Shown here one piece after another: positions 9,713 to 54,745 of a stretch of 64,000 nucleotides of DNA. The notes under the pieces are model-generated. The model saw nothing but the letters and a program-made list of their open reading frames with translations, had not been told where the DNA came from and did not search any database. A program made the position numbers and the translations under genes. The stretch spans positions 1-64,000 of the forward strand of contig CAUYUJ010015849.1 of assembly GCA_963575745.1 (NCBI GenBank), in the 5' to 3' direction. This DNA comes from Prorocentrum cordatum. Its lineage: Eukaryota > Sar > Dinophyceae > Prorocentrales > Prorocentraceae. Numbering within the stretch: the first letter of the stretch is position 1; each line of letters opens with the position of its first letter.

Positions 9713-9730
9713 GGTCTCCGCATCGTAGCT

Positions 9731-11550: not shown

Positions 11551-11559
11551 GGCCCGTAG

Positions 11560-25499: not shown

Positions 25500-26915
25500 C
25501 CATTCCACGCTGATGCCTCTGCCCGAGACAATCCAAGCAGCCCCCAAAGAGGCCCCCGATATGGCCGCTAGACAGCCCAAGAAGGACGAAAGACTGCCCT
25601 AGAAATCCACGACCAGAGCCCAGGAGGCTCCAACGAGGCCCCCTAGTGGGGCTCCAAAGGGAAACCCGAACCGCAATGTCGAGCAATCCCTGTAAAGATA
25701 CCCTCCGAGACTGCCAGCAGGCCCCGAGAAGACCAGAGTAAACCTCTCTGAGGCCCCCCCGATGAACCCCCAAGAAACCGCAAGAGACCTCAGGAATCCA
25801 TCTAACAGTCCCCCCAGAAGATTGCCCGAACGAGCCTCTACGAGTCCGCGGCCTCTCTGGGGCCTTCGTGGGGCCAGCCCGGGGCCTTCCTCCGGATCTC
25901 CTTTTCAGGGTCGGCGGAACTGGCCGACAGGCCCCTCCAATAGGTATGGGGCTTACGTTGGGAGTCTTGGAAGCGATCAGAACAGCTCAGAATGGGTTCT
26001 CGGTTCCTGTTCTCCAGCCTGTAGCTCCTTGCGGAATGTGGGAGGGCGGGCGCGTGGAGCTGGCTGTAGCACCCCGCCCCCTCCTGGGCTCCAAAAGCTC
26101 CCACCTCCACTAGACGGCGCCCCTTGCAAGCCCTCGCTGCTTCGCAGTGCGCGGCCGGCACCGCTCTCGATCAATGCGAGCATCGGGGCAGCAGCGCGCC
26201 CATCGACGGTGGCGGCGCCCCCGCGTGAATCCAATATCTCCGAATGCCCGTGCTGCCCAGTCTTCTCAAGGACTCCCCAGGAAAGTAAATGGCTCTCTCG
26301 GTCTGGGGACTCACGGGACCCTTCTAGACAAGAGCGAGGCTGACTTGTTCAGGACTGCCTCCAAAAGGAGGTACCCAGATGGCAGTCGCGGGCACTGTGC
26401 GTAGCCTCGTCTCCTCTCCCTGCCCTTCTCCGCAGTGCATCCAGTTAGTTCGCGCGCCCGATACAGCGGCGGTGAACGGTTACGCCATGATTTGTCACTC
26501 GAGGCTTGATTGGGATGCTCCGCAGGTCTCGACCCCTGCCCCTGACTTTGCTGGCGTTTCGAATGCGGTCGAATCTAAGCGGGCCCCGAGCGTTTTCGCC
26601 AGCCTCCTCGGGGCAGGCCTGAGGGCGCCGAGGGCGGAGCAGTAGGTTGTTCACAACCTCCTCTGCTTTTGTGGGGCAGGCCGCATCCTGGCCCTTGATA
26701 TTCCCTCTACTCTCGCCCCCCCGCCCCCCCCCCGCCCCGCGCCCCCTTCCCCCCCTCTCAATGAGCCAAGATCACAACCAACAGGCGCGACACATCCGTG
26801 CGGAGCGGCGTCGCCGGCAGGCGGCGTCGCGCGGCCAGGCCCCGCCTGCCCCTGCTTTCTGCCGCCAGCCCCGCCCTGGGAAGAGGGCGGCTCGCGAGGG
26901 GGCGTCTTGTTCTCT
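25500..26915. other. No recognised gene
   Basis: 25500-25830 carries the CAAGA-type degenerate minisatellite. The rest looks unique. Open frames such as 26379-26645 have no recognisable motif. Confidence 0.5.
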
Positions 26916-26916
26916 C

Positions 26917-27157
<241 letters not shown>

Positions 27158-27418
27158 GCGCCCCGAGGAGCGGCCGCAGTCGGTCGAGCCGACCGCGGAC
27201 GCCCGAACGCACGCGCAAGGCCGCGCAGCCCTCACGGCTGCAGGCCCGGCATCAGGGCGGCCAGCCCCAGCAGGCCGCAGGCGGCCGCGCGCAGGCGCGC
27301 GGCCGAGCAGGACCTGGGCCCCAGCGAGGCTGCGCCCAGGAGGCGGCAACGCGCCAGGCGCGCGGCCGAGGGGCCCTCAGGGCCCGCGGGCAGCCCGCCA
27401 GCAGCAGCAGCCCCGAGC

Positions 27419-27640
27419 TCATCCGAGCGGCCGCTCCGTGTACGGGTCCTTCCCGCTCAGCAAGCGGCCCAGGTAGAGCCTCTTCTTCTTCTCCCCAGCC
27501 GTGGCCTGCGGCCCGAGCGGCAGGCGGCATCCGCATTCCGCCTTCAGGCCCTTGGCCCGATCCACGCCCTTCAGCTGCGCGAAGGCCCCGCACTTGCAGC
27601 AGAAGGCATACTGCCCCGCCGTGCGCATGCCGCGCCCCAA
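27419..27640 (-). pseudogene. LINE-A terminal zinc finger
   Basis: End of the minus-strand frame 28072-27419. It has 'FCCKCGAFAQLKGVDRAKGL' followed by a Cys pair 'ECGC', then 'RLYLGRLLSGKDPYTERPLG'. The C-x2-C-G ... L-x3-C pattern and the G-K-x-P ending match C-terminal zinc-finger tails of dinoflagellate LINEs. It is one frame off the long ORF that precedes it (shift between 27660 and 28070). Confidence 0.7.
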
Positions 27641-27662
27641 GTGCACCTCTGCGAGCTGCACC

Positions 27663-30600
27663 TCACCGCGCGGCGGGCGGGGGCCTCCCACCCGCTCGGG
27701 GCTCCTCGAGCGCTGGGCCCCATCGGGCATCCGCGCTCGCCCCCTGCCCGCCGCCGCCGCACTCGCTGGGCCCAGCAGCCGCTGCCGCCGCCGCTGCCAA
27801 GGCACAGGCAGCCGCCACGGGGGGCCCCCCCGCCCCGCGGGCAGCTGTAGCCTCACCTCCTCCGTGACCCAGCGCAGGGTCGTCGCCTCCCACGGCGTCG
27901 GCCTCGCCTCGAAGTCCCTGATCCGCCCCTTCTGGCTGCGGCGGCGGTGCCTGGCCCGCTGCGGCCGCAGGCGGGGGCGGAGGCAGCCCAGACGGCGCCG
28001 CCCCTGGGTGCGGCCAGTCGTCCTCGCCGTCGCTGTCGCTGCCCAGGGCACCTGGCCCACCCTGCATCGCATTCACCATTGGCAGCTGCTGGTTGTGCCG
28101 AGTGCCTGGCCACGGCCGTCGCAGTGCTTCGATCCCTCGGCCTCGAAGGCCCAGGGGCCGCGGCAGGCCAGCTTGGCGGGATGGCTGCTCGCTGGAGCCA
28201 GCGGGGCCCAGGCCAGGCAGGGCACCAGCGAAGCCAGGCAGCGCGGGCAGGTTGGCCCCCGCCTCGCCGATGACGTCCTCCATGGCGCAGCAGACGTCGT
28301 CCAGCGTGGCCCACTGCAGGGCAGCCACGTGCAGCCACTCCTCCAAGGTCACCAGGCTCATCAGGTGCCCCACTGTGATGCGCCGCGCGTCCGCTTTCAA
28401 GAGCCACGCTTGCCTGGCCATCGCCTGGACCAGCGCTCGCAAGCCTATGGGGCCTGCACGCCTCGCAGCCGCCGCCCCCGTGTCCTCGTTGTCGGGCCTG
28501 GCCAGCCAGGCGAGGGCGTACTGCGCCGCCCAGGCCATCCAGGAGTCCTCCGCGGCCTCCGAGTCGCGCAGGTCGAACGCCCAGCAGCCCGCGAAGGCCC
28601 TCAGCATGCTGCGCAGCACGTCCAGGCCGATCGCTGCGTCAGGGTCGGGGCTGCCGTTGCGCTCGGCCTCGGTATGGGCCGCGGGCTGGCCCCGCGCTTG
28701 CGGAGAGCGGGGCCTGCTGGCCGACCGCCTCGCACTGCGCCTGCGCCGCTGGGCGTGGGCGGCCCGCGGGTCCACTGGCCGCTGTGGGCCCTCCGCATCG
28801 CCTCTTGGCCGCTGCAGCGCAGGCCTCTGCGGCTCGGCTCGGCCCCCCGCGGGGCCCTGCGGCTGGCTGGTGCGGCTGCTCGTCCGAGACCTCGAGCGCC
28901 CTCGCCGCCGGGGCGCGCCACTCTGCCGCCAGCCGCCACTACCACCTCCACGCGCCCCGCCCACGGGCTCAAATAAGGCGAAGTAGAGAGGCCCACGTCT
29001 GCCCCCAGCGCGCCGTGCGCTGCCACGATCGCACAGGGAGGCGCGCGCCGCAGCGTGGTAGCCCCTCAGCCGCTGGAGCTTGGCTTGTAGGGCCTCGCCC
29101 TCCAGCTGGAGCGTCTCGTCAATGTGGGCCTCCCTGAGTGACCCGCCATAACGCCAGCCTCTCTCGCAGAACTCCTCGGCCCGCCTCAGGCGCTCCGCGC
29201 TGCGCATCTCGTCGCTGTTGTGCGCGAAGAAGCCGCGGTCGACCTCCTCGTCCAGCAGCCTGTACACGTACTCTACGCACTCCTCCATCCAGGGCGCGCA
29301 GGCCAGGCTCTGGTCCATCAGGTCGGCGATGCAGGAGCTAGCCAGCATGCCCAAGGCGGCCTCCAGCGGCCCAGCGCGGCCCCACGCTTCGATGGCGAAG
29401 AGGTCGTTGCCTCCCTGCGGCCGCGCCAAGCCCGCGCGTCTCACGGCGCCGCCCTGCTCGCAACCTCGATCGGGTCGAGGAACGGGTCGCTGCGACCTCC
29501 GTGCCTTTGGCGGTCCAGATGCCCCCGTGTCGGCAGGCCTCGCAGCAGGGGCACCCTTGGCCGCCTCCAGCAGGTAGTTGACCTCCCGCTGCAACGTCCA
29601 CTTCTGGTCCTCTGCCGTGGTGTGCGCCCCGCTCGTGGGCAGGAGCTCCTCCCCCCCCCCCAGGCGCTCAGCCGCCTGCAGGCTCGCATTGACAGCTGCT
29701 GAACTCGCCAGTGGCCGCCCCTGGTTGCAGTGGGCCCGCGTCCTGTCCAGCGCCGCAGGCTGGCAAGGTCTACAGTCCAGCAGCGTCCGTGCCTTTGCCG
29801 TGTAGGCCTCCCTCCCGCAATGCACACAGTGCACTCCGCACAAGCTGGTGACCTGAGAATCGTGCCTCGGGAGGCTGAGCTTTGGGGCAGCGGGCCCCCT
29901 CCAAACCTGACGGCGCTGGAGTCTGCCATCTTCGCCGAGGGGCCTCCACAGGTCCAGCTGGCAGATGCGCGCCGCCGCCCAGCCCAGGAACGTGGCCGTG
30001 TCCAGGGCGCGCTGGAGCTCCGCCTGCAGCGCCTCCACCGTGTCGTTGGGCAGCCTGGTCTCCTCCGCACCGAGGTTGGCGAAGAAGTCCGCCCAGCAGT
30101 TCCCCAGCCAGTCCAGGGGCCGCAAGCCCTCGCCCAGCGCGTGTTGGAGGCTGCGGTGGGCGGGCACCCATCGGAAGCGCGGCGGCGGTCCCCCGCGCCT
30201 CGCTGCAGCCGCATGGAGCTGGCGCCAGATGCTGGCGTGCCGTGCCCTGGCCGATTGCGCCGTCGGGGGCCAGTCGCTGCCCTCCGTTACTAGGGCCTGC
30301 AGGTCGCTGACGATGACCTGGACAGAGCCCGCCTGCACCAGGGGCGCTAGGCACGCTTGCCGTTCAGCCCTCCCCACCGTCTGGCGCGGCCCAGGCAGCG
30401 GCCCGCATGCCGCCTTGGGGGGGAGCCCATCAGGCCTGAGGGCCACCGCGGCCCATCCACACCTTCGCGCCTCGGGGGCACTGGAGGCGTGCCCTGAGCC
30501 GTCCGTGTATACAACCGACGGCCAGCCCCCCTGCGCGGCGCCCCACTCCAGGACCACGTTGTCCGACGGCGCAGGCGGCGGCATGGCAAGCAGCAACGGC

Positions 30601-31934
30601 AGGCCGTACGACGGCGGCAGCTCGCTGTCCCCGATGGCCCACTTCTGCTCGGCCTCCTCCAGCTGGTGGCGCATCTCCGCGATCGGCTTGCGGAACGGCT
30701 CCTCGTGCTCCAACTCTTCGCCACGCGGTGCCATGAGGACAGGGCATGCGCACCACCTGTGCATGAGCGTGTCCTTGGCTCCCCCGCAGGCCTGGCACAT
30801 GTCGGAGTCGGCGTATCCTCTGGCGTATCCCCGGGCGTTGGTGAAGTGCCCTCCTGCCCAAAGCGCTTGGATGGCCCCCAGCTCCGCCGCGGGCCTCGTC
30901 TTGCACGCCACGGCGCGGACTGCCCTCGGCCAGAGGGTCTCGCCCTGGCCCTCGGGCAGGTGGGCTACCAGCCGCCTGCACTGCCAGCCCTCGATGCCCC
31001 CCACCAGCGCGTCCTTGATGTCCCGCGGGGCCACCCTCAGCATGGACAGCGTCTCGCCCAGGTCGGTCTGCAGCGCCCGCGCCGCTGTCATCGACCAGCC
31101 GACGCGGCCGAGCGTGAGCCACGTGGCCCCGAGCGGGCCTTGCACCGACGCCCAGGGCAATGCGCCCGCCCTCGCCGCCTCAGCCAGTTTGCCCCAGCTG
31201 GCGCTCAGGCTGGCCAGGGGGCCCCGGCCCTCCCAGATGCGGCTGGCCAGGCGCGTCACCAGCGGGATGGTGGCTGCGTATATCGGATTGTAGTCCACGC
31301 GCCGCTGCAGCAGCATGACCGCGGCGGTACCACAGCCTGCCTTGGCACCCGCCGTGGCCGCCGCCACCGTCCCCAGCTGTGCCAGCGGCCGATCCGCCAG
31401 GCCAGCCACGCCCGCGCCATGGCCAGCCGAAGGGGACAGGCCCGCGGCTACCAGCGCCGCTGCGCGCCTTCCAGCGGCCCGCCTGAGCATGGCCACTCGG
31501 CTGCGCCGGGCCGCGAGGGCCTGAAGGCGGCGCTTCTCCTGAATACGGAGCACCTTCCGCCCACGGAGCTCGCGCCCTAGGTTGCGCCCCCAGAACTTCT
31601 CCGCGAGGCCCGCGCTCCGCATGGAGGGCGCGAGCAGCCGCGCCCTCAGTCTGGAGGAGGCCAGGTGCCCCGACTTCTGCGGCCGCAAGACTAGCTTGAA
31701 CTCCACCATGCTCGACGAGAAGCTCTTGAGCGCCTCGGACAGGCTGTCATCGGGCGCGCCCCGTGGCCCGCCCCAGTCCAGGGTGACGTCGTCCACCAAG
31801 CCGCGCGGTGTCACCGACGGCGCAATGGCGTGCGCTCGCTGCAGCGCGCGGAGCGTGAGTACCATCAGCAGCGAGTTGGCGTGGCCGCGCCCTGCGATGT
31901 TCCCTTGCCAGGCCACAGATGTCCGACGTGGCAT
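27663..31934 (-). CDS. LINE-A ORF2, C-terminal half: RT palm end, RNase H and long extension
   Basis: 1423 uninterrupted codons. The order is RT motif B ('IAGRGHANSLLMVL'), motif C 'LVDDVTL' with LVDD in place of YADD, RT thumb, a zinc motif 'MCQACGGAKDTLMHRWCACP', then RNase H with all expected residues (Asp in 'VYTDGSG', Glu in 'GRAERQA', Asp in 'IVSDLQALV', His in 'FRWVPAHRS', Asp in 'NCWADFFAN'). A Cys-rich finger 'CVHCGREAYTAKARTLLDC' follows. The remaining roughly 700 codons are largely helical, with no recognised fold. The true start lies upstream in another frame (shift near 31910), so this is a fragment of one large polyprotein. Confidence 0.88.
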   Translation of the reverse strand: MPRRTSVAWQGNIAGRGHANSLLMVLTLRALQRAHAIAPSVTPRGLVDDVTLDWGGPRGAPDDSLSEALKSFSSSMVEFKLVLRPQKSGHLASSRLRARLLAPSMRSAGLAEKFWGRNLGRELRGRKVLRIQEKRRLQALAARRSRVAMLRRAAGRRAAALVAAGLSPSAGHGAGVAGLADRPLAQLGTVAAATAGAKAGCGTAAVMLLQRRVDYNPIYAATIPLVTRLASRIWEGRGPLASLSASWGKLAEAARAGALPWASVQGPLGATWLTLGRVGWSMTAARALQTDLGETLSMLRVAPRDIKDALVGGIEGWQCRRLVAHLPEGQGETLWPRAVRAVACKTRPAAELGAIQALWAGGHFTNARGYARGYADSDMCQACGGAKDTLMHRWCACPVLMAPRGEELEHEEPFRKPIAEMRHQLEEAEQKWAIGDSELPPSYGLPLLLAMPPPAPSDNVVLEWGAAQGGWPSVVYTDGSGHASSAPEARRCGWAAVALRPDGLPPKAACGPLPGPRQTVGRAERQACLAPLVQAGSVQVIVSDLQALVTEGSDWPPTAQSARARHASIWRQLHAAAARRGGPPPRFRWVPAHRSLQHALGEGLRPLDWLGNCWADFFANLGAEETRLPNDTVEALQAELQRALDTATFLGWAAARICQLDLWRPLGEDGRLQRRQVWRGPAAPKLSLPRHDSQVTSLCGVHCVHCGREAYTAKARTLLDCRPCQPAALDRTRAHCNQGRPLASSAAVNASLQAAERLGGGEELLPTSGAHTTAEDQKWTLQREVNYLLEAAKGAPAARPADTGASGPPKARRSQRPVPRPDRGCEQGGAVRRAGLARPQGGNDLFAIEAWGRAGPLEAALGMLASSCIADLMDQSLACAPWMEECVEYVYRLLDEEVDRGFFAHNSDEMRSAERLRRAEEFCERGWRYGGSLREAHIDETLQLEGEALQAKLQRLRGYHAAARASLCDRGSARRAGGRRGPLYFALFEPVGGARGGGSGGWRQSGAPRRRGRSRSRTSSRTSQPQGPAGGRAEPQRPALQRPRGDAEGPQRPVDPRAAHAQRRRRSARRSASRPRSPQARGQPAAHTEAERNGSPDPDAAIGLDVLRSMLRAFAGCWAFDLRDSEAAEDSWMAWAAQYALAWLARPDNEDTGAAAARRAGPIGLRALVQAMARQAWLLKADARRITVGHLMSLVTLEEWLHVAALQWATLDDVCCAMEDVIGEAGANLPALPGFAGALPGLGPAGSSEQPSRQAGLPRPLGLRGRGIEALRRPWPGTRHNQQLPMVNAMQGGPGALGSDSDGEDDWPHPGAAPSGLPPPPPAAAAGQAPPPQPEGADQGLRGEADAVGGDDPALGHGGGEATAARGAGGPPVAAACALAAAAAAAAGPSECGGGGQGASADARWGPALEEPRAGGRPPPAAR

Positions 31935-32697
31935 TGAACGTCGCCAGCGTCATTGGCTGCCGATAGGTGCTCAACAGCATCCACGCCAGCCCCATAGGGA
32001 ACCCCAGCGCTCGGGCCTCCACCAGCTGCGCCTCGGGCGCCACCAGCTCGTAGGCCTTCCAGAGGTCGAGGGCCACCTGGGCTGAGCCCAAGCCTCCCAG
32101 GCGAGCCTGTTCCTTGGCCAAGTTCAGCTCGAACGCGGAGTCGGAGCTCGAGCGTCCAGGGCCTGTGCCCCAAACCAGGGCCGAGGGATGGGCAAGCTCC
32201 CAGTTCGTGGTGATCGGCCTTCTTGCTCGGCTCCACACTCGCACCAAAGTCGGCATGAGGCCGATCAGCCTGCAACCCCCGTCGGGCTTGGGCAGCCTCA
32301 CCATGGTGTTGGTGAGGCGACCACTCGGCCACGCGAGGAGCTCCTAGCACTTGTGGTAGACCGCGATCATGGCGTGCAGGGCCTCGTCGGGGAGATCCTC
32401 CAGCGCCCTCGGCGGAATGCCCGACTGGCCCACCCCTGTGCGCCATGGGAACGGTCGTATCACATCACGTACGTCGTGCAGCTGCAACGGCGGCAACTTG
32501 CCCCATGCATGCGCGTCGAGGGGGAGCTCCATGCTGGTGAGGCCGTGGTAGTTCCAGATGTCGACCCACGGCTTCAACTCCCTGCCCACCAAGGCTGCTG
32601 AGCCTTCCTTCTGCAGCCAGGGCAGCACCTCCTGGAGCGCAGGTACATTGGAGGTCGCATGCGCCGCTCCCGCGCCGCCCAGGAAGGCCTCGTCCAC
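31747..32697 (-). pseudogene. LINE-A reverse transcriptase, N-terminal half
   Basis: One frame interrupted only by TAG at 32344. It contains 'GGAGAAHATSNVPALQEV', 'VRLPKPDGGCRLIGLMPTLV' (RT motif 1-2 region), 'GTGPGRSSSDSAFELNLA' and palm motif A 'VALDLWKAYE' with its catalytic Asp. Motif B follows in the next frame, so a frameshift lies near 31910. The D-L-W-K-A-Y-E form of motif A differs from the common D-x-x-x-A-F-D. Confidence 0.88.
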
Positions 32698-34406
32698 CTA
32701 CTCCTTCCAGCGGGCCTCGTCGGCCTGGACCAACCTCCTCTGCTTCTCCTTCGCCTCAACCAGCGCGCGCTTGAGGTCCCGCTCGAAGTCCGCCTCTGCC
32801 CAGTTGGCATCAGCTCGGAAGGGCCGCTGTGCCCACCGCGGCAGGGTCCGCCAGTGCACATGGTCCTCGATGTCCGCCAAGAATGCCCTGAGGTGCGCCA
32901 GGGTGGCCGCGATGGACTTCGCGCACTTGTCCCTCGCCGCGACCGACTTTCTGCCTTCCTCCTGCCTGTGGCTGTCCAGCGCTGCCAGCAGCTTGCCCAG
33001 GCGGTCGCTGAGGAGCTCGGGCGCCCACCCAGCCAACGCCGCCCAAGCGTGAACCCCTGGCCCCCGCAGCTTCCCCTTCTGGGGTGGCCTCCACTGCGCC
33101 ATCTCCCATCTCAAACCTGCAGCCTCCCCCCGCGTGCCGCGCCCAGCGAAGGCGCGGCGCGCGGGTCCCGCCAGGTCCCGCCTTTTGAGGATCTCCGTCC
33201 CAATTCCCTCCAGCAGCAGGTCCCAGATGATCTGCAGGCCTTGGTCGCCCTGCGTGGCCTGGACGCATCGCATCACCTCCGTCCACCGCCAGGGACCACG
33301 GGCGCAACCAGGCTTGGCGGGCCCCCTGGGAACTGCCCTCGGCTCATCCAGCACCTGCTGCCAAGTCTCCACTCTCAGTGTCCGCAGGGGCAGGTGGACG
33401 GGCCAGTGGGGCCACGTGCTGGCACCCCTGTCGAGCCGCGGCGGTGCCTCCGCAAAGCAAGCCAGGCTCTTGGACATCACGAAATAGTCGATCCTGGAAC
33501 CGCTGCCCTGTCTGCAGGTGGGGGCGTCGGGTACCCGAATCTGCGCTCGCAGCTTGCGGATCCACCCGGAGTCCAGGACGTCCGCCTCCATGTTCCAGTC
33601 TCCCATGACCGCCCAGTGGTAGCCTGGTAGCTGTCCGCCTCCAGCACGCCGAGGTACTGGGCCAGCTGCCACATGATGCCCAGGTAGTTCGCCGAGGGCC
33701 CCTCCCCGACGTGCAGGTGCACACTCAGCACCACCACGTCTCCTTGAGGTCCTGCTCGTACATGCCCAGCGACCAGCCGCCCAGGCACCAGCACGTGCGA
33801 GTCGCGCCCAGGGGGGCCCGTCAACTGGATGCTGGCGGGGGCCAACACCGCGACCCCGCCGCTCGTGCCCGTTTTCGATGCCGGGGACGGCGCAGCGGCG
33901 CTCCAGACTCCGTGCCAGCCAGCATCCTTGGCCGCCCGCTGCTGCGTCGCCAGGACGCTTGCCGCACAGTGGTGCTCCTGCACGGCCAGCGCCAGGGTCG
34001 CCTGGCCATCCGCCTGAAGGAGGTACTCATTCAAGGGCCCCCGCGACGTCGCGTTGGCGGTGGCCAGGCAGCAGCCCCCCCTGACCATAGGCGCGCGCTC
34101 ATCCACGCGGCCCCGAGGTGGGCCTGCAGCTCCTGTCTTCTGGCCAGGCAGGGCTGGGGCCCGCGGGAGGGCGGCGCCATCCCGCGGCTGGGGGGGCGGG
34201 GTGGGCGGGGCCTGCAGCCTTCCTGGCAGACCGGGCGGCCGAGCTCCTCGAAGAACTGGTCGCCCCCCTCCAACGAGTCGCCGAAGGTGAAGTCCGTGCG
34301 GGGGGGAGGCTGCGACTTCGAGGGGCTGAATCCCTCCGCCTCCCCCCCCCTGGGCCGTACCCTGAGGCCGCCACCCGTGGTTGCCAATTTGGAGACCCCT
34401 GGTCAA
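32698..34406 (-). pseudogene. LINE-A AP-type endonuclease
   Basis: This endonuclease nicks the target DNA for target-primed reverse transcription. Recognisable pieces: 'TANATSRGP' (Asn), 'AVQEHH' (Glu), 'TGTSGGVAVLAP', 'VVVLSVHLHVGEGPS', then after a frameshift near 33640 'AVMGDWNME' (GDWN motif), 'SRIDYFVMSK' and 'HWPVHLPL', where the usual S-D-H is W-P-V-H. The second part runs to TAG at 32698, beyond which the same frame continues into RT. Replacement of the Asp before the last His is notable and may abolish or change activity, unless this lineage normally differs there. Confidence 0.82.
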
Positions 34407-34759: not shown

Positions 34760-35994
34760 TCAAGCCGAAGTGCGCGCCCGCTTGGGCGGCAGCAGGTCCA
34801 AGTCGTCGTAGAACCGCTTGAAGGCTTCACGCACATCATCGTCAGCAGGACGATCAGTGCCCTCGACCCCAGCTGGGGCAGCCCCCACCTTCGTGAGGAA
34901 GTTGAGCTGCGTGTCGACGTCCAGCTCCTCGTCGCCCATGGCATCTCCGCCTGCAGGGGCTCCTTCCCCAGGGATCGGGGCACGCACCCGCTCGGCCGCC
35001 TTGGCTGCTGCCGCTGCAGCCTCGGCAGCCCTGGCCTCTCGGCGCTGCTGCTCGACCTTGGTCGCCTGCTCCAGCAGCGACGCATGCAGAGCCCCTTCGA
35101 TCCCGATCGAGCCCAACACCTTGCCCAGGAAGTTGGCGGAGACCTTGAGGCCTCGACCTCGAGATCCCCCTCCATGCCGCTGCGCAGCTCAGAAGGAGGC
35201 TGAGCCAACTTGCCCAGCGTGCGAGCCTGCTCCGCCCTGAGCTCGGCCAGCTTCGCCCCCCTCTCGGCGTCCGCCAGGCGCAGCGCTTCGGCCTTGGCGT
35301 CAAGCTCCTTCTGCTGCGCCGCCACTGCCACCATCTCCCCGCGGCCCTTATCCTGCTGCTTCTCCGGCTTCTTGATCTGGTCCGTGAGGCTCTTGAGCGG
35401 CACGTCCTTGGGCTTAGCCTGGAAGACCTCCTGGCGCAGCTGATCTCGCTCCGCCTCGAGCTTGGCCTTCCTGCTGCGGGCGGCCTCCACGAAGTCGCCC
35501 CCCTCGTCCTCCATGTCCGCCCAGCGCCGAATCTCGCCCAGCTGCTTGTCCAGCTGCTCCAAGCGCTGGCGCTTCTCGCCCCCCGCCGCTGCGTCTTCTC
35601 GCCAGGGGGGCGTGCCTCCTCCAGGCGCGGAGCTTCCTCCCGCTCCAGGCTGGGCCGCCGCCGCCTTGAGCCTCTTGAGCTCGTCCAGCGCCTGGGCGAG
35701 CTTGACCTCGGCGTTGCTCCGCGAAGGCGCAGCCTGCGCCGGCCCCCCCCCGAAGTGGGAACTCTTCGGCATGTTGCATCACTTGCGCTGCATGCGGTCC
35801 CCGAAGTTGAGCTTCCTGAAGCCCCTGGCGCCTGGCGTACTGCACGACTGGCAGTGCCAGGGGCTCTCGGCAGCTGCCTTGGCCGCTGCCCCAGACTCGC
35901 CACTGCGGGGCCCGCCGCCAGGCCCCCCTGACTCCCCTGACTTGCCGCCGCCGCCTCCGCCGCGCGCCCCGCCGCCAGAGCTGCCCCCAGCCAT
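34760..35994 (-). pseudogene. LINE-A ORF1: zinc finger and coiled coil
   Basis: ORF1 proteins bind element RNA. I start at the ATG at 35994 ('MAGGSSGGGARGGG'). A RanBP2-like finger follows: 'WHCQSC', then 'LNFGDRM'; the second Cys pair is damaged by TGA at 35779. After 'CNMPKSSHFGG' comes a long heptad-rich coiled coil ('LAQALDELKRLKA', 'RQRLEQLDKQLGEI', 'QQKELDAKAEALRLADAE'). A frameshift near 35160 moves the frame to the C-terminus, which ends 'FYDDLDLLPPKRARTSA'. An upstream ATG at 36149 directly after the spliced leader opens a different, shadow-like frame. Confidence 0.78.
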
Positions 35995-36152
35995 GGCGCC
36001 CCCAGCGCAGCAAGGAGACAAAGCGCGGCCGCCGCCCGCCGCGGCCGCGAGCGCTGGCAAGGAACTTGCAAAGAGTCCTGGCCCAAAGCGCGAGACCCCT
36101 CGCGCTCAGGAAACGCCCGCGAGGGACTCGCGGTCGTCGGGTGTCTCATGGC

Positions 36153-36173
36153 CTTGAGCCAAAATGGCTACGG

Positions 36174-36174
<1 letters not shown>
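36153..36174 (-). other. Dinoflagellate spliced leader (relic SL)
   Basis: The minus strand reads T-C-C then GTAGCCATTTTGGCTCAAG, matching the dinoflagellate nuclear mRNA spliced leader at all 22 positions, with T at the variable first base. The SL is added in trans to mRNA 5' ends and is not normally part of a gene, so its presence in front of an element shows that a trans-spliced transcript was reverse-transcribed and inserted. The 3' edge (after CAAG) leads straight into the LINE-A 5' leader. There is no SL RNA gene here: the expected GT donor after the SL is replaced by GC and the downstream SL RNA body is absent. Confidence 0.96.
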
Positions 36175-37160
<986 letters not shown>

Positions 37161-37162
37161 CC

Positions 37163-38607
37163 TAACTAGCGACAGTCGGCAACGACGCCTTCTGCCGCGA
37201 GCACACCCAGCAACGAGTCGACACGGCCACCGAGCTCCTCGACGCGCTCGGCGCTCTGGAGAACGCCCACCTGCTGCGACAGTGCGCCGGCGTCTGCAGG
37301 CTGATCATCTCAGCGCGGGTTGCTCCGCCCAACGTGCACGCGGAAGCCCTGATTGCCTTCGACAAAGCAATCCGGGCCAGCCTGGAGCTGCTGAGCAACA
37401 GCTGCCCGACGGACGACTTCTGGGCTCGAGCGCAGCTCGTCCTCAAGGCAGGCGGCCTGGGGCTGCGCTCAGCGGAGAGCCACGCGCCCGCCGCCTACCT
37501 AGCTTCCCGCGCGGTTTGCTCTGCGCTCTGCCGGCAGCTGTGGGCTGGCGATTCCGACGACGACACTGGCGCCGACGGCGCTTTGAGCACTGCCGTGGCG
37601 TCCTGTAACGCCCAGCTGCCGCGGGCGGGGAAGATCGAGTTCGACGCTGGCCGGCACGGCGACCAGCGGGGCCTCTCTGACAAACTCGACAAAGCCGCCA
37701 CGGCCGAACTCTGGGCGCGCGCCAGCCTCGCCACCAGGGCCCACCTCTCGCTGGTCAGCCCCGAAGGCGCTCGCAGAGGTCGCCAGCCTCGCCACCGCGG
37801 CCTAACGCAGGTCGCCTTGCAGATGCGGCTGCGGGCGCTGGGGGACGAGGGGGCTTTCTGCCCAGCCTGCGACGGCATCCTCGACGTATATGGGGACCGC
37901 GCGCTGGTGTGCCCCTGCCGCGGAGACCGCGTGAAGCGGCACAGCGCCTTGCGCGACCAGATTTTCTTCGCCGCGCAGGCCGCTGGCGTCCCTGACGCCG
38001 AGCTCGAGCGACAGGGCTTGCTGCAGCCCCGCCTGCGGGGCGAGGGCCCCCCCGAGACGGAAGACGGCGGTGGGCTCGACGAGGGCGCCCCGCGCCCAGC
38101 AGATGTGTACATCCTCCGTTGGCGCAGCGGCGTCCCGGCCGCTTTGGGTTTCGCAGTCACCTCCGGCTGCGGGGGGACCAGCTAGCTGCCTCAGCCGCCG
38201 CGCCCGGCGCCGCCGCCGAGTTCTACGAGGAGCAGAAGCGCCAGTTTCTCGACACGGCGCGCAGCTGCCGCGCGGCAGGCGTCACCTTCATTCCGATGGC
38301 GATGGAGGCGCACGGTGGCGCATGTGGGAAGGAGGCGCGCCGCGCGTTGGCCGCCCTGGCGAAGCGCGCGGCGGACGCCACTGGGGAAGACCCTGCGCAG
38401 GCGGCGGCGGAACACGCCCAGCGACTCTCGCTACTCCTGCACAAGGAGAATGCGCGGGCCGTGCTCCGCCGTCTGCAGGCGCCACGCGGGGCGCCCGCGG
38501 CCAGGCTGGCCGCGGCGACAGCGGCGCAGGCGGCGGACGCCGCGTGGGCGGCCCCAGGCCAACCCTCCGCCCCTGACCAACCCCATCCCCTTTCCAGCCC
38601 GCGATGA
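37163..38607 (+). pseudogene. LINE fragment C: RT C-terminus with a PD-(D/E)XK-like tail
   Basis: The 5' end is truncated. The frame includes 'LLDALGALENAHLLRQCAG', 'GGLGLRSAESHAPAAYLAS' (RT thumb/connector), a zinc motif 'CPACDGILDVYGDRALVC' with 'RHSALRDQ', then 'RPADVYILRWRSGVPAALGF'. R-P-x-D...(about 13)...D is the endonuclease signature of restriction-like LINEs; here the second Asp position is Gly. A shift near 38180 moves to the frame ending 38607. This lineage is distinct from LINE-A and LINE-B, which carry AP endonucleases. Confidence 0.72.
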
Positions 38608-47651: not shown

Positions 47652-50569
47652 GTGAGGTACCTCCGCGCGGGGCTCCCGGACACCTGCTGCCAGGCAGGAA
47701 GACCAACGCCTCAGGCCGCAGCGTCCCCAAGGATCGACGGCTTCGAGGTGCCAGGGCTTATTCACAGCGTTCGTGGTTATTCATGGCGTTCTGCTCTGGC
47801 CTTTCTACCTTTTCTTCTACTTGCCAGCCCTGCCGAGGCAGGGTGCACTGATAGTCCTGGGTCAGAGGATCACTTAGTTCTGGGAGGAGGTTTGACGAAC
47901 GGGGAGATGGACATTGGGTACTTGGGGATGGGTACTGGTCTTCTTCTTCGATCTCGGTTTGTTCCTACTTTAGTTTCGTACGGGGAGATGGGCTTTGGGT
48001 ACTTGGGTATGGGCGCTGGTCCTCTTCTTCGATTTCAAGTTCTTCTTTTTGTTCTGCGCGCGACCGTCTCCACGATGGTCTACCTTCTGCGGCATTGTCT
48101 CCGGGCGTCGGGGACGCGGCAGCAGACGCAGAGTGAGGCGCAGCGGGTCAGCTTGCCAGGATCCGCTTGGCGGGCCCACGCCCGCCCGCTCAGTGGAGGA
48201 TGGCCGGCTCGCCGTGCGGGACTCGTGCGGCTACCCAGCAGGAGGAGGTGGAGTTCGTCGCGCGGGCCCTCGACGCCTCCCAGACAGCACGACGCCATGA
48301 ACGTCGTGATCCTTCGTGCACGCCTGCGGGAGCGTCATCGCGAGCAGTGCGCCGAGCGGCGGCGCAACCACCAAACGAGGCGGAGGCGGGCGCGCTACCG
48401 TGCCCGTATCAAAACTGGCACCGACTCCTGCGACGGCAGCCACAGCACAGCACCAGCACCTGAACCTGTGATGCTCATCTGCGACGGCGGCAGCGGCGGC
48501 AACTCCAGCACACCAGGCACATCAGCACCTACGACGCCCACTGGCGACGTCAGCAGCGGCAACACGTTCACATCACAGGCGTCAGCAACTCCGACTCCCT
48601 ACTGGGACAGCAGTCGCGACGACAGCACCGGTGAGGCGGCACCACCAGCACCCACTGCACTCAACCGCGACAACGGCAGCTACTACAGCAATAACTCAGC
48701 ACCAACGACGCCTACCAGCGACGAGAGCATCGATGAGGACGGCATCCACAGCTGGCGGGCTCCAGACGGACAGCTGATCCCCAACGTCCGCATGGGGGCT
48801 CCTCAGTCTGTTTCTCCCAAGATCGCCAAGGCCATCACGGCTGCGATCCAGGCAGCCCTTGCGGCTCCTTCCCGACGACCGCAGAAGCCGGCTCAGGGGC
48901 GCAAGCGACGGAGGGCCAAGAGAACAGCGGCGGCAGCTGCGCGAAGGGGGGCGCAGCCGCAGCAGCAGCAGCAACGGCAAAAGCAGCAGCAGCAGCAGCA
49001 GCAGACATCCGACAACCAGCAACAGCACGACGATTCCTCTTCACCAGACTGGAAGCGCAAGCTTGGTCAGGCCGACGAGGCCACGCTGGCTCAGATTGCA
49101 GCGGTGATCGAGGCACGGCGCACTCAGCTCAAGCAGACTACGCAGCAGCAGGATAAGTCCACGCCTCAGCCAATAACACGGGTCCGGCGCTGGAGGGTGA
49201 ACTAGCGGTCTTTTGGTGACAAGACTTTCACGTCCTCCACCAAGGTGCTGGAAGCCCTACGAGAAGGCCACGCACCGAGTGGGGATGTATGTGTGATGAG
49301 CACGACACAGCTCCAAGAGGCGCGGGCCACGGCCTGCCAGCACGATATTGATAAGCCTCTCCTTCTGGTATGCCCTGACGCCCCAGCTGATTCACCACCA
49401 CCAGGCGCAGAGGTGTCTTATGTGGAGGCTCTTGTCAAAGGGAGACCTACCCTCAAGCGATGCGCTACCGTGACTCTTGGGAATGGGGGCAAGTCCGACC
49501 CGCCGCTCAGAACTACTGAGGGCGCCGCCGCCCCTACGCAGCAGGATTCTGTCACTTTGCGCTGCACTGTGAAGCGAGAGTACACCAACTCAGCTGAATG
49601 GAACTCTGCCAGACAAAACCCAGGCGACTTTTCGACCCGCGGCATGCCCTTGACCAGTGTTGTGGCCTCTGAGGGCTTCGCCGAGAAAGTTGACAGCAAG
49701 ACCAGCCGAGTGCTGGAGGTGCAGATTTACGTCAAGGTCCTGCGGACAGACGCTGACCGCCTCATCACCGAGTTCAGCGGCACCTCGGGACGTTTCTACC
49801 GCGTCATCGCTCGCGACAGGGGCAAGACGCCAGACGACTTACCTGTACGGTGGATCCCTCGACTCAAAGATGAGGAGCACGAGTTGTATCACGCTCGCGT
49901 GCAGAAGCTTGCGACGGACGATCCCAACTCCAAGGGACTTGTGCTGCGTCCCACTGGTGGATCCGACCTCGGCGTGCGAGGCCTCCAACCGACCACAGCC
50001 CCTCTCAGCACTTGGCGCGTCCACGGCGTGAACGACTGGACCCCGGAAATGCTGACTGGATGGCTCACCAACAGTGGGTGGAAGCAGGTGGAGATCCGCG
50101 ACAAGCCGTCGGGGCGCTACGGCTGGCTGGTCCGCGCTGACCCCCATCATGGTCGACCTGGGCACGGCACCGCTACCCCGGCTGATGCTTGGAAGATCAC
50201 CTTCCCGGGCGACTCTGGCAGGGCGCCGGTCAGGGTAGAACGGTACGTCATGGCCTCGCGGGGTCCGCAGGAGGAGCTGAAGACTATTTCGACGAGGCGT
50301 GCTCGTTGGGCTCGTGGCCAGAACCCGGAAACTGGCAAGCCCGTGTACGAAGCCGCCTATGAGCAAGCGTGTCAAGCCCGAGCTGACGCCCGGGCGCAGG
50401 AAGACGCAGACTTGGAGAGCATGGAGCCTACGGAACGGGCCAGAATCGCCGAGGAGCGTGCAGCACGGCGCAAGCAGGAGGATGCTCGGGCTGTACAAGC
50501 CCTGTCGGAGGAACGGGAACGCGCCGCTGCCGCGAAGGCGGAGGCGGCGAAGGCCAACGCACCTACGAC

Positions 50570-50610
<41 letters not shown>

Positions 50611-50760
50611 CACCACAGCAGCAGCAGCAAAAGCAGCAGCAGCACCAACAGCCCTCACAGGAGGCCGCGCCATCGGAGCATCAGGCCACAGGAGCGCCGC
50701 AGCCGGCGGCCGCCCAGACCTTACCAGCACCAGCACGACCGTCTTCCCGGGCCTTCACCA
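47652..50760 (+). pseudogene. LINE-B ORF1 region
   Basis: One frame to 51017 broken by a TAG at 49203. The N-terminus holds a hydrophobic segment ending in an A-x-A-like site ('LAFLPFLLLASPAEAG') and an 80-bp duplication (47898-48060) giving two 'GYLGMG' motifs. Then come a Ser/Thr/Pro-rich acidic linker, 'SPKIAKAITAAIQAALAA', a basic patch 'GRKRRRAKR' and poly-Gln. After the stop come about 500 residues with no recognised fold ('WRVHGVNDWTPEMLTGWL', 'GWLVRADPHHGRPG') and a Glu/Ala-rich coiled coil before a second poly-Gln run. An RNA-binding role is inferred from position and charge only. I cannot tell whether the first 80 codons belong to the element. Confidence 0.6.
48958..49010 (+). repeat. 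CAG repeat in LINE-B ORF1
   Basis: CAG-rich run encoding poly-Gln; a second one lies at 50572-50655. Confidence 0.9.
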
Positions 50761-50769
50761 AGGGCTGGG

Positions 50770-51310
50770 CCAAGGAGGAATTCGAGGAGATCGACGCTGT
50801 GACCAACGGCGGCGACTGCCAGTACCGGCACACCGCCATCGCTTATTTCTTGGCCCATGGTAAAAACAAGGAAGACCTGGTGAAACCTGCAGAGGCCGCC
50901 AGCCTTGCGAAGACCATGCGTGCCGAAGTCGTCGTCGAGCTCGAGAACAATCGGGAGTACTACGAACCTTTCGTCAAGCACATCCCTTCGCATGACAGTG
51001 ACAAGACTAAGCCATAGACATGGGATCAGTACCTCGACCTCGTCAAGACCCAACCTACACGCTGGGGAGACGCCGCAGTGACGCTTGCTGCTGCCACGCA
51101 CCTCCACAGCCAGATCTTCATCTACATGGGTGGCCTCGTGGAGGGTAACACTTGGCGGTGGCTGCAGAGATGGGATTGCTGGCCGCGGGAAGGCGCCGGC
51201 AAGGCGGTGAGAGGAGCCCTTGAGAATCCACCGCTCCACCTGGGCTTCCGGGACGGGCACTGTTTCGTGCTTGTTCCCCGTGACGTTGCACAGCGGACCT
51301 CCCTGAGCAA
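50770..51310 (+). pseudogene. OTU-like cysteine protease domain in LINE-B
   Basis: OTU enzymes remove ubiquitin from proteins. Seen here: 'VTNGGDCQYRHTAIAYFLA' with the candidate nucleophile Cys at 50817-50819, a helix 'LAKTMRAEVVVELENNREYY', then 'WDQYLDLVK...RWGDAAVTLAAATHL', '(S)QIFIYMGG', and near the end 'LGFRDGHCFVLVP' with the candidate His at 51258-51260, 147 residues after the Cys. This order (G-D-x-C, W-G, His-aromatic/valine strand) is the OTU layout. The usual Asp three residues before the Cys is Gly here, and a TAG at 51015 splits the domain (K-P-*-T-W-D). The assignment is by pattern, not search. Confidence 0.7.
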
Positions 51311-51333
51311 GAAGCGCCCCCAAACAGAAGGAG

Positions 51334-52870
51334 GTGATAAAGTTTATTGAACAGGTGCCCCGCGTTGGCATGCCTGCGAGGACGGCCTCACACGTCAGCT
51401 CGGTCGACTCCTTCTTTCGTAAATTACGACAACGCCGTGCGGTGGATGAGCAGACCCACAGGAGCTCCGTCGATTCTGATTTCGCTGCCCTCAGACGGCA
51501 CCGTGAGGAAGAGGTGGCAGGGGCTGGTGGCCAAGGAGGAGGCAGAGGACGAGACAGACGCACTCCCAGCACAGGCACGGGCACTCCTAGAGCTGGATTC
51601 GCCCAGACATGCTGTCAGAGCTCGGCACCAGGGAGCAGATCAGGAGGTAGAGGAGGAGGACGAGGCACTTCCAACACAGGAGGCAGAGGCAGAGGCACAT
51701 CCAGCAGAGCAGGAGGAGGAGGAGGTAGAGGACGCAGCGGCGGCTTCTCCAGCAAAAAGAGCGGAGTGAGGGCGACCAGCAGGGGAGGAGCGACGGTGCT
51801 CCCAGACAGCGCTTCCGCTGCGGCAGGCGGGGCTCGCGGCCGTAGGGCCGCCGAACCCCCTCCGACAGGACCGGCGCCTCGGCTCTCTTGGCGCTGTCAC
51901 ATGCCGAGCTGCGACGCCATCCTCTTCAAGGACACGGTCAAGAGGCTCCAGGAGGCCCGTAACCACCACATGGTGACCGTGCACCCTGAAACCAAACGGT
52001 TCTTGTCGACGACCATGCGCTGGAATGCGCCGATGGACATTCCAGCAGTATCAGCCGATGTACCACTTGAGGAGGCTACGTGGCACTGTGGCCTTTGTGA
52101 CGCGCGACAGCGGCAGGGAGGCACCGCCTATCAGCGGAAGCGGGCTCGGCAGCTCCACCGGTCCCAGCGCCACCCAGAGGCCACTTCTGCCGAGTGGAAG
52201 CGCGCTTGTACTTTGAAAGCGATCCAGCACAACTCTGGGCATCGCTCCAAAGATTCAGAGCACATGAGAATTATGCAACAGAAGGGCGTGGCTGGCCATA
52301 AGGCCGCCGTGCAGAGCAAATACGACCAGGCCAACACGGGGGAGCACCAGGTTGTCCTTCTGAAGGCCCCGAGTGTCGACCCAGTCCGACAGTGCGCCAC
52401 GTGCACCCACTGCAACGTGATCTTCCTCTCGGGCCGCACGAGTCGTCAGGAGGTTTGGCAGAGGTTCGCTTGCTGTCGGTGGAACAGCCTGGACACGCCT
52501 TGGCGCTCAGAACGCCAGCTCGCGTTCTGGCAGAAGGTGTCGCCTGTGGATCGTGCGGCGTTCCTCACAGCTTGGCGCAAGGGTTCTTGCCCCCCAGAGC
52601 GCGCCTAGGCCATCTTCGACAAGGCAGCGGCCGTTTTTCGTGAGGAGCCCGTCCCACTACAGAAATGGCAGAACATGAGATGGTTCGGGAAGCCTTTTGC
52701 GGCACACCGAGCCGTAGTCGACAAATTGGCCAGTCTTTACAGTGCTTTGCTGCCGCCAGCCGCCCGTGCGGACGACCAAATGGGGACGCCATGGTTCTAC
52801 CGCGTTCACCCCAAATGGGCGATCACTGTACGCACGCCCGGCCCAGAAGATGGGCGAAGGCGCTGCTGAG
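51334..52870 (+). pseudogene. LINE-B C2H2-like zinc-finger region
   Basis: Frame 1, broken by TAG at 52606. It begins with an RGG-rich linker ('SGGRGGGRGTSNTGGRGRG'), and frame 2 alternatives suggest shifts there. Three Cys/His modules follow: 'WRCHMPSCDA...HHMVTVH', 'WHCGLCDARQ...LHRSQRH' and 'RQCATCTHCNVIF', spaced like long-linker C2H2 fingers. Past the stop the same frame continues ('WQNMRWFGKPFAAHRAVVD') to 52869. A nucleic-acid-binding function is likely from the motifs. It overlaps the next frame by about 130 bp. Confidence 0.62.
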
Positions 52871-54679
52871 GCGGCGACTCCACCATCTTCGACAGCATCA
52901 GACCACTACACAACAGCAGACCGGCAGACGCCCACAGCAATCGTAGCAGCACCCACTAAGTATCCGACAGTGCCACGACAGCAGCACGACGGCAACATAA
53001 CCGCAGCACCACGCCAGCATCACGACATCAACTGCACGTCAGCACCACGACATCACGACATCCACATCAAGTCAGCACCCTCACAGCAGAAGCATCAAGA
53101 CATCCACAGACGACCTGGACGCGGAGGCTCTGCGCAACCAGAGCTCGTATGTCACGGAATACCCCTTCGCTGGGGCACGTCCACGTCAGCACCGCGACAT
53201 CACGACATCAACATCAAGCCTGTACCACGACAGCAGCGACACGACTGCAGCAGCACGCCGACGGCATCAGCTCGACAACGACCAGACAGCAGTCTGCACC
53301 AGGACATCTGCTTGACGGCAGACAGCAGCACGACATCAGCACGACGGCAGCCAGCTGCACGACATCTGCCGACGGCAGACAACAGCCAGCAGCACGACAA
53401 CAGCACTACATCAGCACGACGGCAGCATGACATCAGCACGACGGCACCCGAACAGCCGACTGGCAGGCTTCGAGTTGCCACGCTGAACGTTGCTTCGTAT
53501 TACAAGCACGTCTCTGCCGCCCTGACGGCCGCGAAGACCGAGAAGGCTTCCACCATGTGCCTGCAGGAGACTCTTCTCACGGAGGCGCAGATCCGCTCCA
53601 GCCAGACATCGCTTCAGAGGCGAGGGTGGTCCATGGTTTGCGGCTGCAGCGCCCGCGCCTGGTCCAAGGCCGGCGGGAACTCCCATGACCGAGGAGGGCT
53701 GGCTATCCTGGTGCGGCACGGTTGGAGGGCGACGAGGCAGTACCAGCGGCAGTTGCCGGGCGGCGAGTTTGCGCACTTCCTCCTGGCCAGGGGGCGCGAG
53801 CGGCTGCATGTCTTCAACGTGCACAAGCGGCTGGAAGGCGGGCGCGGGGGAGACCGCCTACGAGTTTCAGTTGATGATTCGACGCATTTTGACGATGTTC
53901 TCGAGACCGCCGTGGCGGCCGTGCCCGCCACGTGCAACGTCATCATCGGCGGAGATTGGAACAGCCCCGTGTCCGGGGGCCACATCTGCGTACAGGCGCA
54001 ATGGGAGGCAGCTGGCAAGGTCCACGTAGCCGTACCTGAGATCAGCACAAGATGGCGTACGCCACACAAGGAGGCCATCGATTACTTCTTGCTCCGCCTA
54101 CGGGGCGGGTACCACGACGTGACTACAGTTGTTTCTCAGGACGTTATCTCCGACCACAAGATGGTTATCGTCGACCTGCCCTGCTTCAGCCTCCAGGAGC
54201 AGCCCGGTACCCACCAGTGGCGACGAGCACCGACACTCTTACGACCCACCGAGAGCGATGAGCAGCGCCACTGCGACGAGACAATGGCGGCGGCAGTTTG
54301 GCTCGAGGACCCGCTTCGTGAAGTCTGGTGTGATCAGCGGGATTACGATGCCTGGTGGCACTCCTGGTCCACTAGGGCGGAGACACTCCTGAGGCTAGCT
54401 ACAAATTCCAACGGCAGGCTGTGGAAGACTGGTGCTGCCTTGACCCGCCCGGGCGATGGTGCCATCAGCAGAGACAAGGACGACGGCGACATGTCGCCCA
54501 AAGAGCGGGAATTCAGAGCAGCACTGGCGACAGGCCATGACTTGGCGGGCCTGCCCAGCAAGCGAACCCAACGGGATGCTTGGCGCCGACAGGATTTGGC
54601 GAGCCATCTTCACACGCAGGCGCAGCATCTTGGTATCGCCACGAGGGGGCTCAGCTGCAAGCAGATCACTGAGCGCTAG
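52742..54679 (+). pseudogene. LINE-B AP-type endonuclease
   Basis: 645 codons. The first 230 codons are low-complexity His/Gln/Ser/Thr-rich and include direct repeat copy A. The endonuclease spans 53465-54180: 'RVATLNVASY' (Asn), 'MCLQETLL' (Glu), 'RGGLAILVRH', 'LHVFNVHKR', 'VIIGGDWNSP', 'EAIDYFLL' and 'ISDHKMVIVD' (Asp, His). All catalytic positions appear intact. It nicks target DNA to prime reverse transcription. A TAG at 54677 separates it from RT in the same frame, so endonuclease and RT were one ORF. Confidence 0.88.
53049..53313 (+). repeat. 265-bp direct repeat, copy A
   Basis: Same length and about 98 percent identical (about five differences by eye) to 57305-57569. It lies inside the low-complexity N-terminal part of the endonuclease ORF. 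Confidence 0.93.
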
Positions 54680-54745
54680 GAGGGCGGCCTCAACAAGCTA
54701 CTGGCCGACAACGCCCGCGGCAGGGTCAAGGCTTGGCGCGACAAG

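What the first reader, a model, noticed from the sequence alone, without database searches (positions are those of the whole stretch)
36153..36174. A LINE whose 5' end is exactly a complete dinoflagellate spliced leader
The full 22-nt dinoSL sits at the outer 5' end of LINE-A on the coding strand, between a GA microsatellite and the element's own leader. Relic SLs are known at retroposed dinoflagellate genes (established). Here the retroposed transcript is the LINE itself. The inference is that this LINE uses host trans-splicing to mature its mRNA 5' end and that target-primed reverse transcription copied the element to its very first base, including the cap-proximal leader. A LINE that regains an SL at each cycle could mark full-length insertions by that SL.
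Basis: partly seen in the sequence, partly recalled or inferred. Interest (0 to 1): 0.93.

Follow-up and report, generated by a model that had tools for sequence, protein, structure and literature searches.

The report
LINE clade capped by spliced leaders
In what looks like the red-tide dinoflagellate Prorocentrum cordatum, a family of jumping genes that lands in simple repeats starts its complete copies, as far as they were read, with the cell's own 22-letter spliced leader, which suggests that it lets the host's RNA splicing make a fresh front end before each jump.

Summary
The exact 22-nt dinoflagellate spliced leader (SL) at 36153-36174 (-) is the outer 5' end of a ~9.0 kb LINE inside a (GA)n microsatellite. 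Host inferred: Prorocentrum cordatum. Searching its genome with the element's leader and no SL, 50 of 50 places read abut an intact or decayed SL, 54 distinct places. Of 492 exact relaxed-leader places, 425 have the SL's last seven bases directly upstream. Three of 30 copies lack leader and SL together. All 11 3' ends read run into (GA)n without SL, against insertion into an SL gene. Ten of 11 stacked-SL places read carry this leader. On a 20-copy tree the SL has 18 terminal and 0 internal changes. Best reading: the LINE RNA is trans-spliced by the host, and target-primed reverse transcription copies it to its first base. No RNA was available. An inherited SL kept by selection, with an internal promoter, is less likely but not excluded.

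The parts
36175..36920 (-). (GA)n-rich microsatellite on the 5' side, the insertion target
   Evidence: a like flank precedes the SL in other LINE-A copies
36153..36174 (-). complete dinoflagellate spliced leader TCCGTAGCCATTTTGGCTCAAG, the 5' terminus of the element
36124..36152 (-). conserved element leader GCCATGAGACACCCGACGACCGCGAGTCC, directly abutting the SL
   Evidence: 492 genome places of its relaxed form
34850..35994 (-). ORF1 region: start codon placed by eye from the annotated relative P0001 (MAGGSSGGG...), cysteine-rich motif, then a charged helix-like stretch; the frame is interrupted in this copy; lower boundary approximate
32698..34406 (-). ORF2 part: AP-type endonuclease (Exo_endo_phos), in two overlapping frames in this copy
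   Evidence: PF03372 E 0.0081, below cut-off; relative P0001 E 5e-05, just below cut-off
31747..32304 (-). ORF2 part: first half of the reverse transcriptase
   Evidence: PF00078 E 0.004, below cut-off; profile of relatives against the RT of LINE-B E 8e-05, probability 61%
27663..31934 (-). ORF2 part: RT end with a VDD motif, CCHC knuckle, RNase H-like TDGS/E/SD/AHR/WADFF motifs (all read by eye) and C-terminal part
   Evidence: translation; homologues; no Pfam family for this piece itself
27159..27662 (-). 3' end region of the element, last bases CTCCTCGGGGCGC
26911..27158 (-). (GA)n-rich microsatellite on the 3' side; no SL remnant

Best explanation
The element is a non-LTR retrotransposon (LINE) of a group that inserts into simple repeats; this sub-family uses (GA)n. 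Its RNA is cut out of a longer host transcript by the cell's own SL trans-splicing, which joins the 22-nt SL directly to the element's leader. Target-primed reverse transcription then copies that RNA to its first base, so a full-length DNA copy begins exactly with an SL, and copies that stop early have none. The inserted SL ends in AG and has a second AG inside (CCGTAG). It can therefore serve as the next 3' splice site: the final AG gives back a single SL, the inner AG gives a full SL plus a 15-nt relic. Shown from DNA: the exact junction, its generality among places read, copies without leader lacking the SL, repeat on both sides, stacked SLs at the leader, private decay of the SL. Inferred: trans-splicing as the source, use of read-through transcription, renewal in every cycle.
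For: Junction at 50 of 50 leader places read, found without the SL in the query; 54 distinct places. 425 of 492 exact relaxed-leader places have GCTCAAG directly upstream, against 1 in 16,384 by chance; reversed control 0. 27 of 30 best DNA matches have leader plus SL; 3 of 30 (L040, L041, L056) have neither in the 1.5 kb read. 11 of 11 3' ends read end in (GA)n. Stacks: 1,202 exact SL+15 nt places, 167 triple ones (a subset of the 1,202), but only 4 of the exact full-SL-T-full-SL type, so the usual acceptor is the AG inside the relic. 10 of 11 stacked places read carry this leader, and L060, which also matches LINE-A further in, is a decayed stack. Tree of 20 copies: SL 18 terminal and 0 internal changes, body about 484 and 593; of 836 sliding 22-column body windows none has 0 internal and 15 or more terminal changes, though 7 have 0 internal. 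Terminal changes per site are 0.82 in the SL and 0.57 in the body, so the SL is not conserved after insertion.
Against: No transcript was seen. The conserved first 30 bases of the leader also change mostly on terminal branches (14 to 2), so the SL's 18 to 0 does not by itself separate renewal from strong selection on an inherited SL. Exact stacks followed by GCCATG number only 13 beside 425 leader places with an SL end, so most cycles would have to use the final AG, which leaves no trace. Two of 30 SL loci (L018, L021) look by eye like decayed full-on-full stacks, a type that the exact count of 4 understates. The 10 stacked leader places were read over at most 97 bases, so that they are LINEs rests on the leader, and for the GCCATGGCG type on one contig-length link. 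L011, a GCCATGAAC-type place, shows no homology to LINE-A proteins in its 1.5 kb. 130 of the 180 places were not read, and 67 of the 492 lack the exact heptamer and were not read as a set.
Confidence: 0.82

Rival explanations
1. Inherited SL: an ancestor captured an SL once; the group now carries it as an ordinary part of its 5' end, kept by selection, and transcription starts at its first base from an internal promoter in the leader.
For: The adjacent 30-nt leader is also conserved and also shows mostly terminal changes, as an internal promoter would; the LINE L1Tc has an internal 5' promoter (PMC4748587, passages).
Against: Does not explain a new full SL set on a 15-nt relic at this leader, nor why places with different leaders and different repeat targets return to the host SL letter for letter (20 of 50 perfect).
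Confidence: 0.14
2. Site-specific insertion into SL sequences: the LINE targets SL exons as SLACS, CZAR and NeSL do, and the SL is flanking target.
For: SL directly at the 5' junction; LINEs that target spliced leader exons are known (PMC4640811, passages).
Against: Upstream of the SL is repeat and downstream is element; 11 of 11 3' junctions read have (GA)n and no SL remainder; copies without the leader lack the SL.
Confidence: 0.01
3. Element leader fused by chance or by assembly error to a relic SL at this one place.
For: None found.
Against: Same junction at 50 of 50 places read, on many contigs.
Confidence: 0.005

Closest known systems
Dinoflagellate retrogenes with relic SL (Slamovits and Keeling 2008, as reviewed in PMC6050394)
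   Same: SL copied into DNA at the 5' end of a retroposed RNA; repeated rounds leave several SLs in a row (PMC7245778 and PMC6050394, passages).
   Different: There the cargo is a host gene; here it is the LINE itself, sitting in a chosen repeat target. PMC6050394 says it is unknown which kind of element mediates retroposition and favours LTR elements such as Ty1/copia.
Trypanosomatid L1Tc LINE
   Same: LINE in a host with polycistronic transcription and SL trans-splicing.
   Different: L1Tc starts from its Pr77 promoter, carries an HDV-like ribozyme there, and the Pr77-derived transcripts tested lacked the SL (PMC4748587, passages).
SL-targeting LINEs (NeSL and others; the names SLACS, CZAR and CRE in this role are recalled)
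   Same: LINE next to an SL sequence.
   Different: Those use the SL exon as target (PMC4640811, passages); here the 3' flank is microsatellite and the SL belongs to the copied RNA.
Microsatellite-specific LINEs (some HERO families; Togen in (TG)n)
   Same: Insertion into simple repeats.
   Different: No SL at their 5' ends is mentioned in the passages seen (PMC4640811); that paper counts HERO and NeSL among LINEs with a restriction-like endonuclease, this group has an AP-type one.
C. elegans Cer1 (LTR retrotransposon)
   Same: Retroelement RNA that can receive an SL (PMC3315495, passages).
   Different: There a spliced 2.4 kb mRNA is found with and without the SL; the 8 kb RNA is not trans-spliced at that site.

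Membership tests
Non-LTR retrotransposon (LINE) with AP endonuclease | AP-type endonuclease domain | tested here: met
   weak in the window piece (PF03372 E 0.0081) and in P0001 (5e-05, 23.6 bits against cut-off 24.5); above cut-off in more distant relatives found by profile: P0016 7.3e-07, P0017 9.1e-07, P0019 2.5e-07
Non-LTR retrotransposon (LINE) with AP endonuclease | Reverse transcriptase domain | tested here: met
   weak in the window piece (PF00078 E 0.004) and in P0008 (0.0011); above cut-off in profile relative P0014 (6.9e-10), below it in P0016 (5.5e-06); hhalign to LINE-B RT E 8e-05, probability 61%; no match among solved structures, none but weak nuclease and coiled-coil names in NCBIfam
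Non-LTR retrotransposon (LINE) with AP endonuclease | Dispersed copies with a common 3' end, some without the 5' end | tested here: met
Non-LTR retrotransposon (LINE) with AP endonuclease | No long terminal repeats | tested here: inconclusive
   the two ends look different; no LTR search was run
Relic-SL retroposed dinoflagellate sequence | SL copy directly at the 5' end of the retroposed sequence | tested here: met
Relic-SL retroposed dinoflagellate sequence | Stacked SL with 15-nt relic | tested here: met
   met at other places with this leader, 10 of 11 stacked places read and L060; not in this copy
Relic-SL retroposed dinoflagellate sequence | Cargo is a host gene | tested here: not met
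   cargo is the LINE
SL-gene-targeting LINE | Insertion inside the SL exon with SL sequence continuing 3' of the element | tested here: not met
   11 of 11 3' ends read run into (GA)n
Microsatellite-specific LINE | Simple repeat on both sides of full-length copies | tested here: met
   5' side; 3' side
Element whose RNA is SL trans-spliced | RNA with SL joined to the element leader | not testable with these tools
   no transcript reads held; DNA stacks are indirect evidence

The most novel reading that the evidence does not exclude
The element has given up the internal promoter. It rides on read-through host transcription, and the relic SL it lays down is a portable, self-renewing 3' splice site that makes its own cap-proximal 5' end anew each cycle. 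Several further SL-headed repeat families in microsatellites work the same way, so that most of the 14,218 exact SL copies in this genome mark LINE landings and not retrogenes.
Probability: 0.45. Interest if true: 0.92.

Novelty: new variant of a known kind. Interest (0 to 1): 0.82.

Why it matters
A LINE must remake its 5' end at every jump, as a rule by an internal promoter (general knowledge); borrowing SL trans-splicing would be a different answer to that problem, and the DNA itself would record each use. The SL would mark complete insertions and, in stacks, the least number of cycles, so full-length against truncated insertion could be counted from sequence alone. It bears on which reverse transcriptase makes dinoflagellate retrogenes, a question that PMC6050394 calls open, and it warns that genomic SLs counted as retrogenes may be LINEs.

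Tried and rejected
SL-gene targeting was rejected because the 3' flanks read are microsatellite. An assembly join was rejected by 50 of 50 places. A cysteine-pair pattern matched ORFs of 9 of these 30 loci; 7 of the 9 look like a zinc ribbon by eye. Pfam on 30 ORFs from 28 of the 30 loci (L011 and L017 not scanned) found no RT in the 1.5 kb held. LINE-B (47652-56737) as a background family: no SL at its visible 5' side, copies not searched. The clade's proteins against solved structures gave nothing. To place the endonuclease protein P0019 next to a GCCATGGCG leader I searched the genome with it; the tool failed twice, so only the equal contig length, 112,935 for P0019 and for C496, links them. 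L011 against LINE-A proteins gave no homology (best E 0.063). No structure prediction was run. The argument from private SL changes is weakened by the 14 to 2 ratio in the conserved leader, so I do not rest on it alone.

Literature: in the rows listed by searches (capped lists; one found nothing) I saw no paper describing a LINE that begins with a spliced leader. Of 13 papers I saw passages only, of the others listings with the start of the abstract. Subscription papers and preprints are not held.

Full report
What is there. On the - strand the window reads (GA)n, then TCCGTAGCCATTTTGGCTCAAG at 36174-36153, then GCCATGAGACACCCGACGACCGCGAGTCC. The 22-mer is the dinoflagellate spliced leader DCCGTAGCCATTTTGGCTCAAG with D = T, as printed in PMC7245778 (passages). 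It is the only match with up to 3 mismatches in the window. The coding strand continues for about 9.0 kb to CTCCTCGGGGCGC near 27159 and then goes straight into another (GA)n stretch.

That it is a LINE. Pieces of this copy match an AP-type endonuclease and a reverse transcriptase only weakly. Of 11 homologues found with the last ORF piece, nine (P0001-P0007, P0009, P0010) are named Prorocentrum cordatum; P0001 has the endonuclease at E 5e-05. A profile of six of them finds 10 proteins. Among the more distant ones, P0014 has RVT_1 at 6.9e-10, P0016 Exo_endo_phos at 7.3e-07 and RVT_1 at 5.5e-06, and P0017 and P0019 Exo_endo_phos at 9.1e-07 and 2.5e-07. RNase H-like motifs and a CCHC knuckle are read by eye from the translation. 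No solved structure matched.

Host. The genome that holds the window has 4,128,499,153 bases, and contig C1 has 3,562,531. The published P. cordatum CCMP1329 assembly is 4.15 Gb with a longest scaffold of 3.56 Mb (PMC10666404, passages); its 22,724 scaffolds differ a little from the 21,875 contigs here. Contig lengths of P0001, P0004 and P0005 (481103, 243475, 426045) equal those of contigs with LINE-A matches. The host is therefore inferred to be P. cordatum.

Is the junction general? I searched the genome with 801 bases of the element that start after the SL (46 matches, 30 cut out as loci). Of the 30 loci, 27 have the leader, and each has an SL or a decayed SL directly before it; L040, L041 and L056 have no leader and no SL in the 1.5 kb read. 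A 29-nt leader pattern with up to 3 mismatches has 180 places and 0 in the reversed control. The 30 loci cut out plus 20 that I chose from the other listed places make 50, and all 50 have an SL at the exact position: 20 perfect, 13 with one mismatch, 8 with two, the rest with three to six except L107, which has a one-base deletion. 23 of the 50 are the same places as, so 54 distinct places were read. Genome-wide 492 places match the relaxed exact leader, and 425 of them (86%) have GCTCAAG, the end of the SL, directly before it; the other 67 were not read as a set.

Target. Upstream of the SL the LINE-A copies have (GA)n. Places with other leader letters have other repeats: GCCATGGCG a GGAGCACGGCAGACCACACA-like minisatellite, GCAATGCGT (AC)n, GCCATGAAC (TGCA)n with (AC)n or (TA)n (read by eye). 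By a simple period score, 29 of 50 leader places have a repeat of period 1-6 in the 60 bases upstream; nine of the other 21 are the minisatellite. The 3' ends of the window copy, of L111 and of nine more copies, 11 of 11 read, run into (GA)n; one search lists 40 matches, so most 3' ends were not read.

How the SL gets there. If the SL were target, SL sequence should go on at the 3' side; it does not. If it were an ordinary inherited part, one would not expect a new complete SL set on a relic. Stacks of SL plus CCATTTTGGCTCAAG occur at 1,202 exact places, triple stacks, a subset, at 167, and the exact SL-T-SL type at only 4, although two of the 30 SL loci (L018, L021) look like decayed stacks of that kind. 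So new SLs are mostly joined at the AG inside the relic SL (CCGTAG|CC). With GCCATG behind the stack there are 13 exact places; I read 11, and 10 carry this leader (L121-L129, L131; L130 does not). Three of the 10 are the GCCATGGCG type; a protein with an endonuclease related to LINE-A, P0019, lies on a contig of 112,935 bases, the length of C496, which has four GCCATGGCG leaders. Placing it exactly failed. L060, which matches LINE-A in the leader and again further in, is an older stack. RNA with this leader has thus been trans-spliced onto relic SLs, and the products went back into DNA; for the other stacked places the LINE nature rests on the leader alone.

Renewed or inherited. On a tree of 20 copies built without the SL, the 22 SL columns have 18 changes on terminal and 0 on internal branches; the body has about 484 and 593. 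Of 836 body windows of 22 columns, 7 have 0 internal changes, all in the leader, and none combines that with 15 or more terminal changes. This fits an SL that starts perfect in each copy and then decays freely. The caution is that the conserved first 30 leader columns have 14 and 2, so selection in the active lineages gives a similar pattern.

Background of SLs in this genome. There are 14,218 exact SLs and none of the reversed sequence. The first 30 listed all lie on contigs C1-C3; 23 of them have a repeat of period 1-6 upstream at the chosen score, against 13 of 339 windows further upstream in the same loci. Among the seven without, L030 is a WD40 gene, and L012 lies in a minisatellite-like stretch. 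L008, with a KOW motif, is in a (TCC)n stretch, so a host-like sequence can also be in a repeat. What most of these 30 encode is not known; the zinc-ribbon look of 7 of 30 hints at more LINE families but does not show it, and L011 shows no homology to LINE-A proteins.

Known relatives. The papers of which I saw passages treat relic SLs as marks of retroposed genes; one says that which element does the retroposition is unknown and favours Ty1/copia (PMC6050394). Endogenous virus pieces with relic SL, with LINEs named as likely carriers, have been reported (PMC10235124). LINEs of Symbiodinium that carry a DNA methyltransferase are described without mention of an SL in the passages seen (PMC5890265). 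Trypanosomatid L1Tc has a promoter and a ribozyme at its 5' end, without SL (PMC4748587). I saw no paper in the listings of searches that describes a LINE beginning with an SL; these lists are capped, so this is a limited statement.

Verdict. What is left is the RNA: an SL-LINE junction read from a copy with a mutated genomic SL would settle it.

Noticed in passing
L132 1936-2913 (-), IMG/VR contig IMGVR_UViG_3300045993_001077: An AT-rich contig filed as viral carries a 254-aa ORF that looks richer in GC, with an exact dinoflagellate SL 45 bases upstream of its start and a second exact SL 147 bases further upstream: it looks like a host mRNA copied back into a large virus or its host.
   Followed up: partly
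window 47652-56737 (+): A second LINE with clear endonuclease and reverse transcriptase and no SL within 7 mismatches at its visible 5' side.
   Followed up: partly
window 8579-13767 (-): Open frames that by eye look like a Ty1/copia-type element (HVDD reverse transcriptase motif, integrase-like and zinc-knuckle parts).
   Followed up: no
window 36985-38185 (+): Directly beyond the GA/TC stretch lies an open frame on the other strand that by eye resembles the C-terminal part of a LINE reverse transcriptase (GGLGLRSA); perhaps a truncated insertion at the other end of the same repeat.
   Followed up: no
contigs C496, C612, C1676, C3561, C4649, C13230, C13356, C13435 of the window's genome: The GCCATGGCG type often has several leader places on one contig, many 4-14 kb apart, as if insertions nest or line up in one minisatellite.
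   Followed up: no
L044, L050, L051: The SL variant CCGCAG turns up in 3 of 20 tree copies as separate terminal changes, either a mutation hot spot or a minor SL RNA.
   Followed up: no
window 14709 (-): CCCGTAGCCCCCCTGGCTCAAG, 5 mismatches from the SL; about one match of 7 or fewer mismatches per strand is expected by chance, so it may be nothing or a decayed SL.
   Followed up: no
C19206, C8031, C2736, C11113, C14796, C15420, C17221, C2213: Short matches to only the last 110-150 bases of LINE-A: heavily truncated copies, sister families or SINE-like passengers sharing its 3' tail.
   Followed up: no
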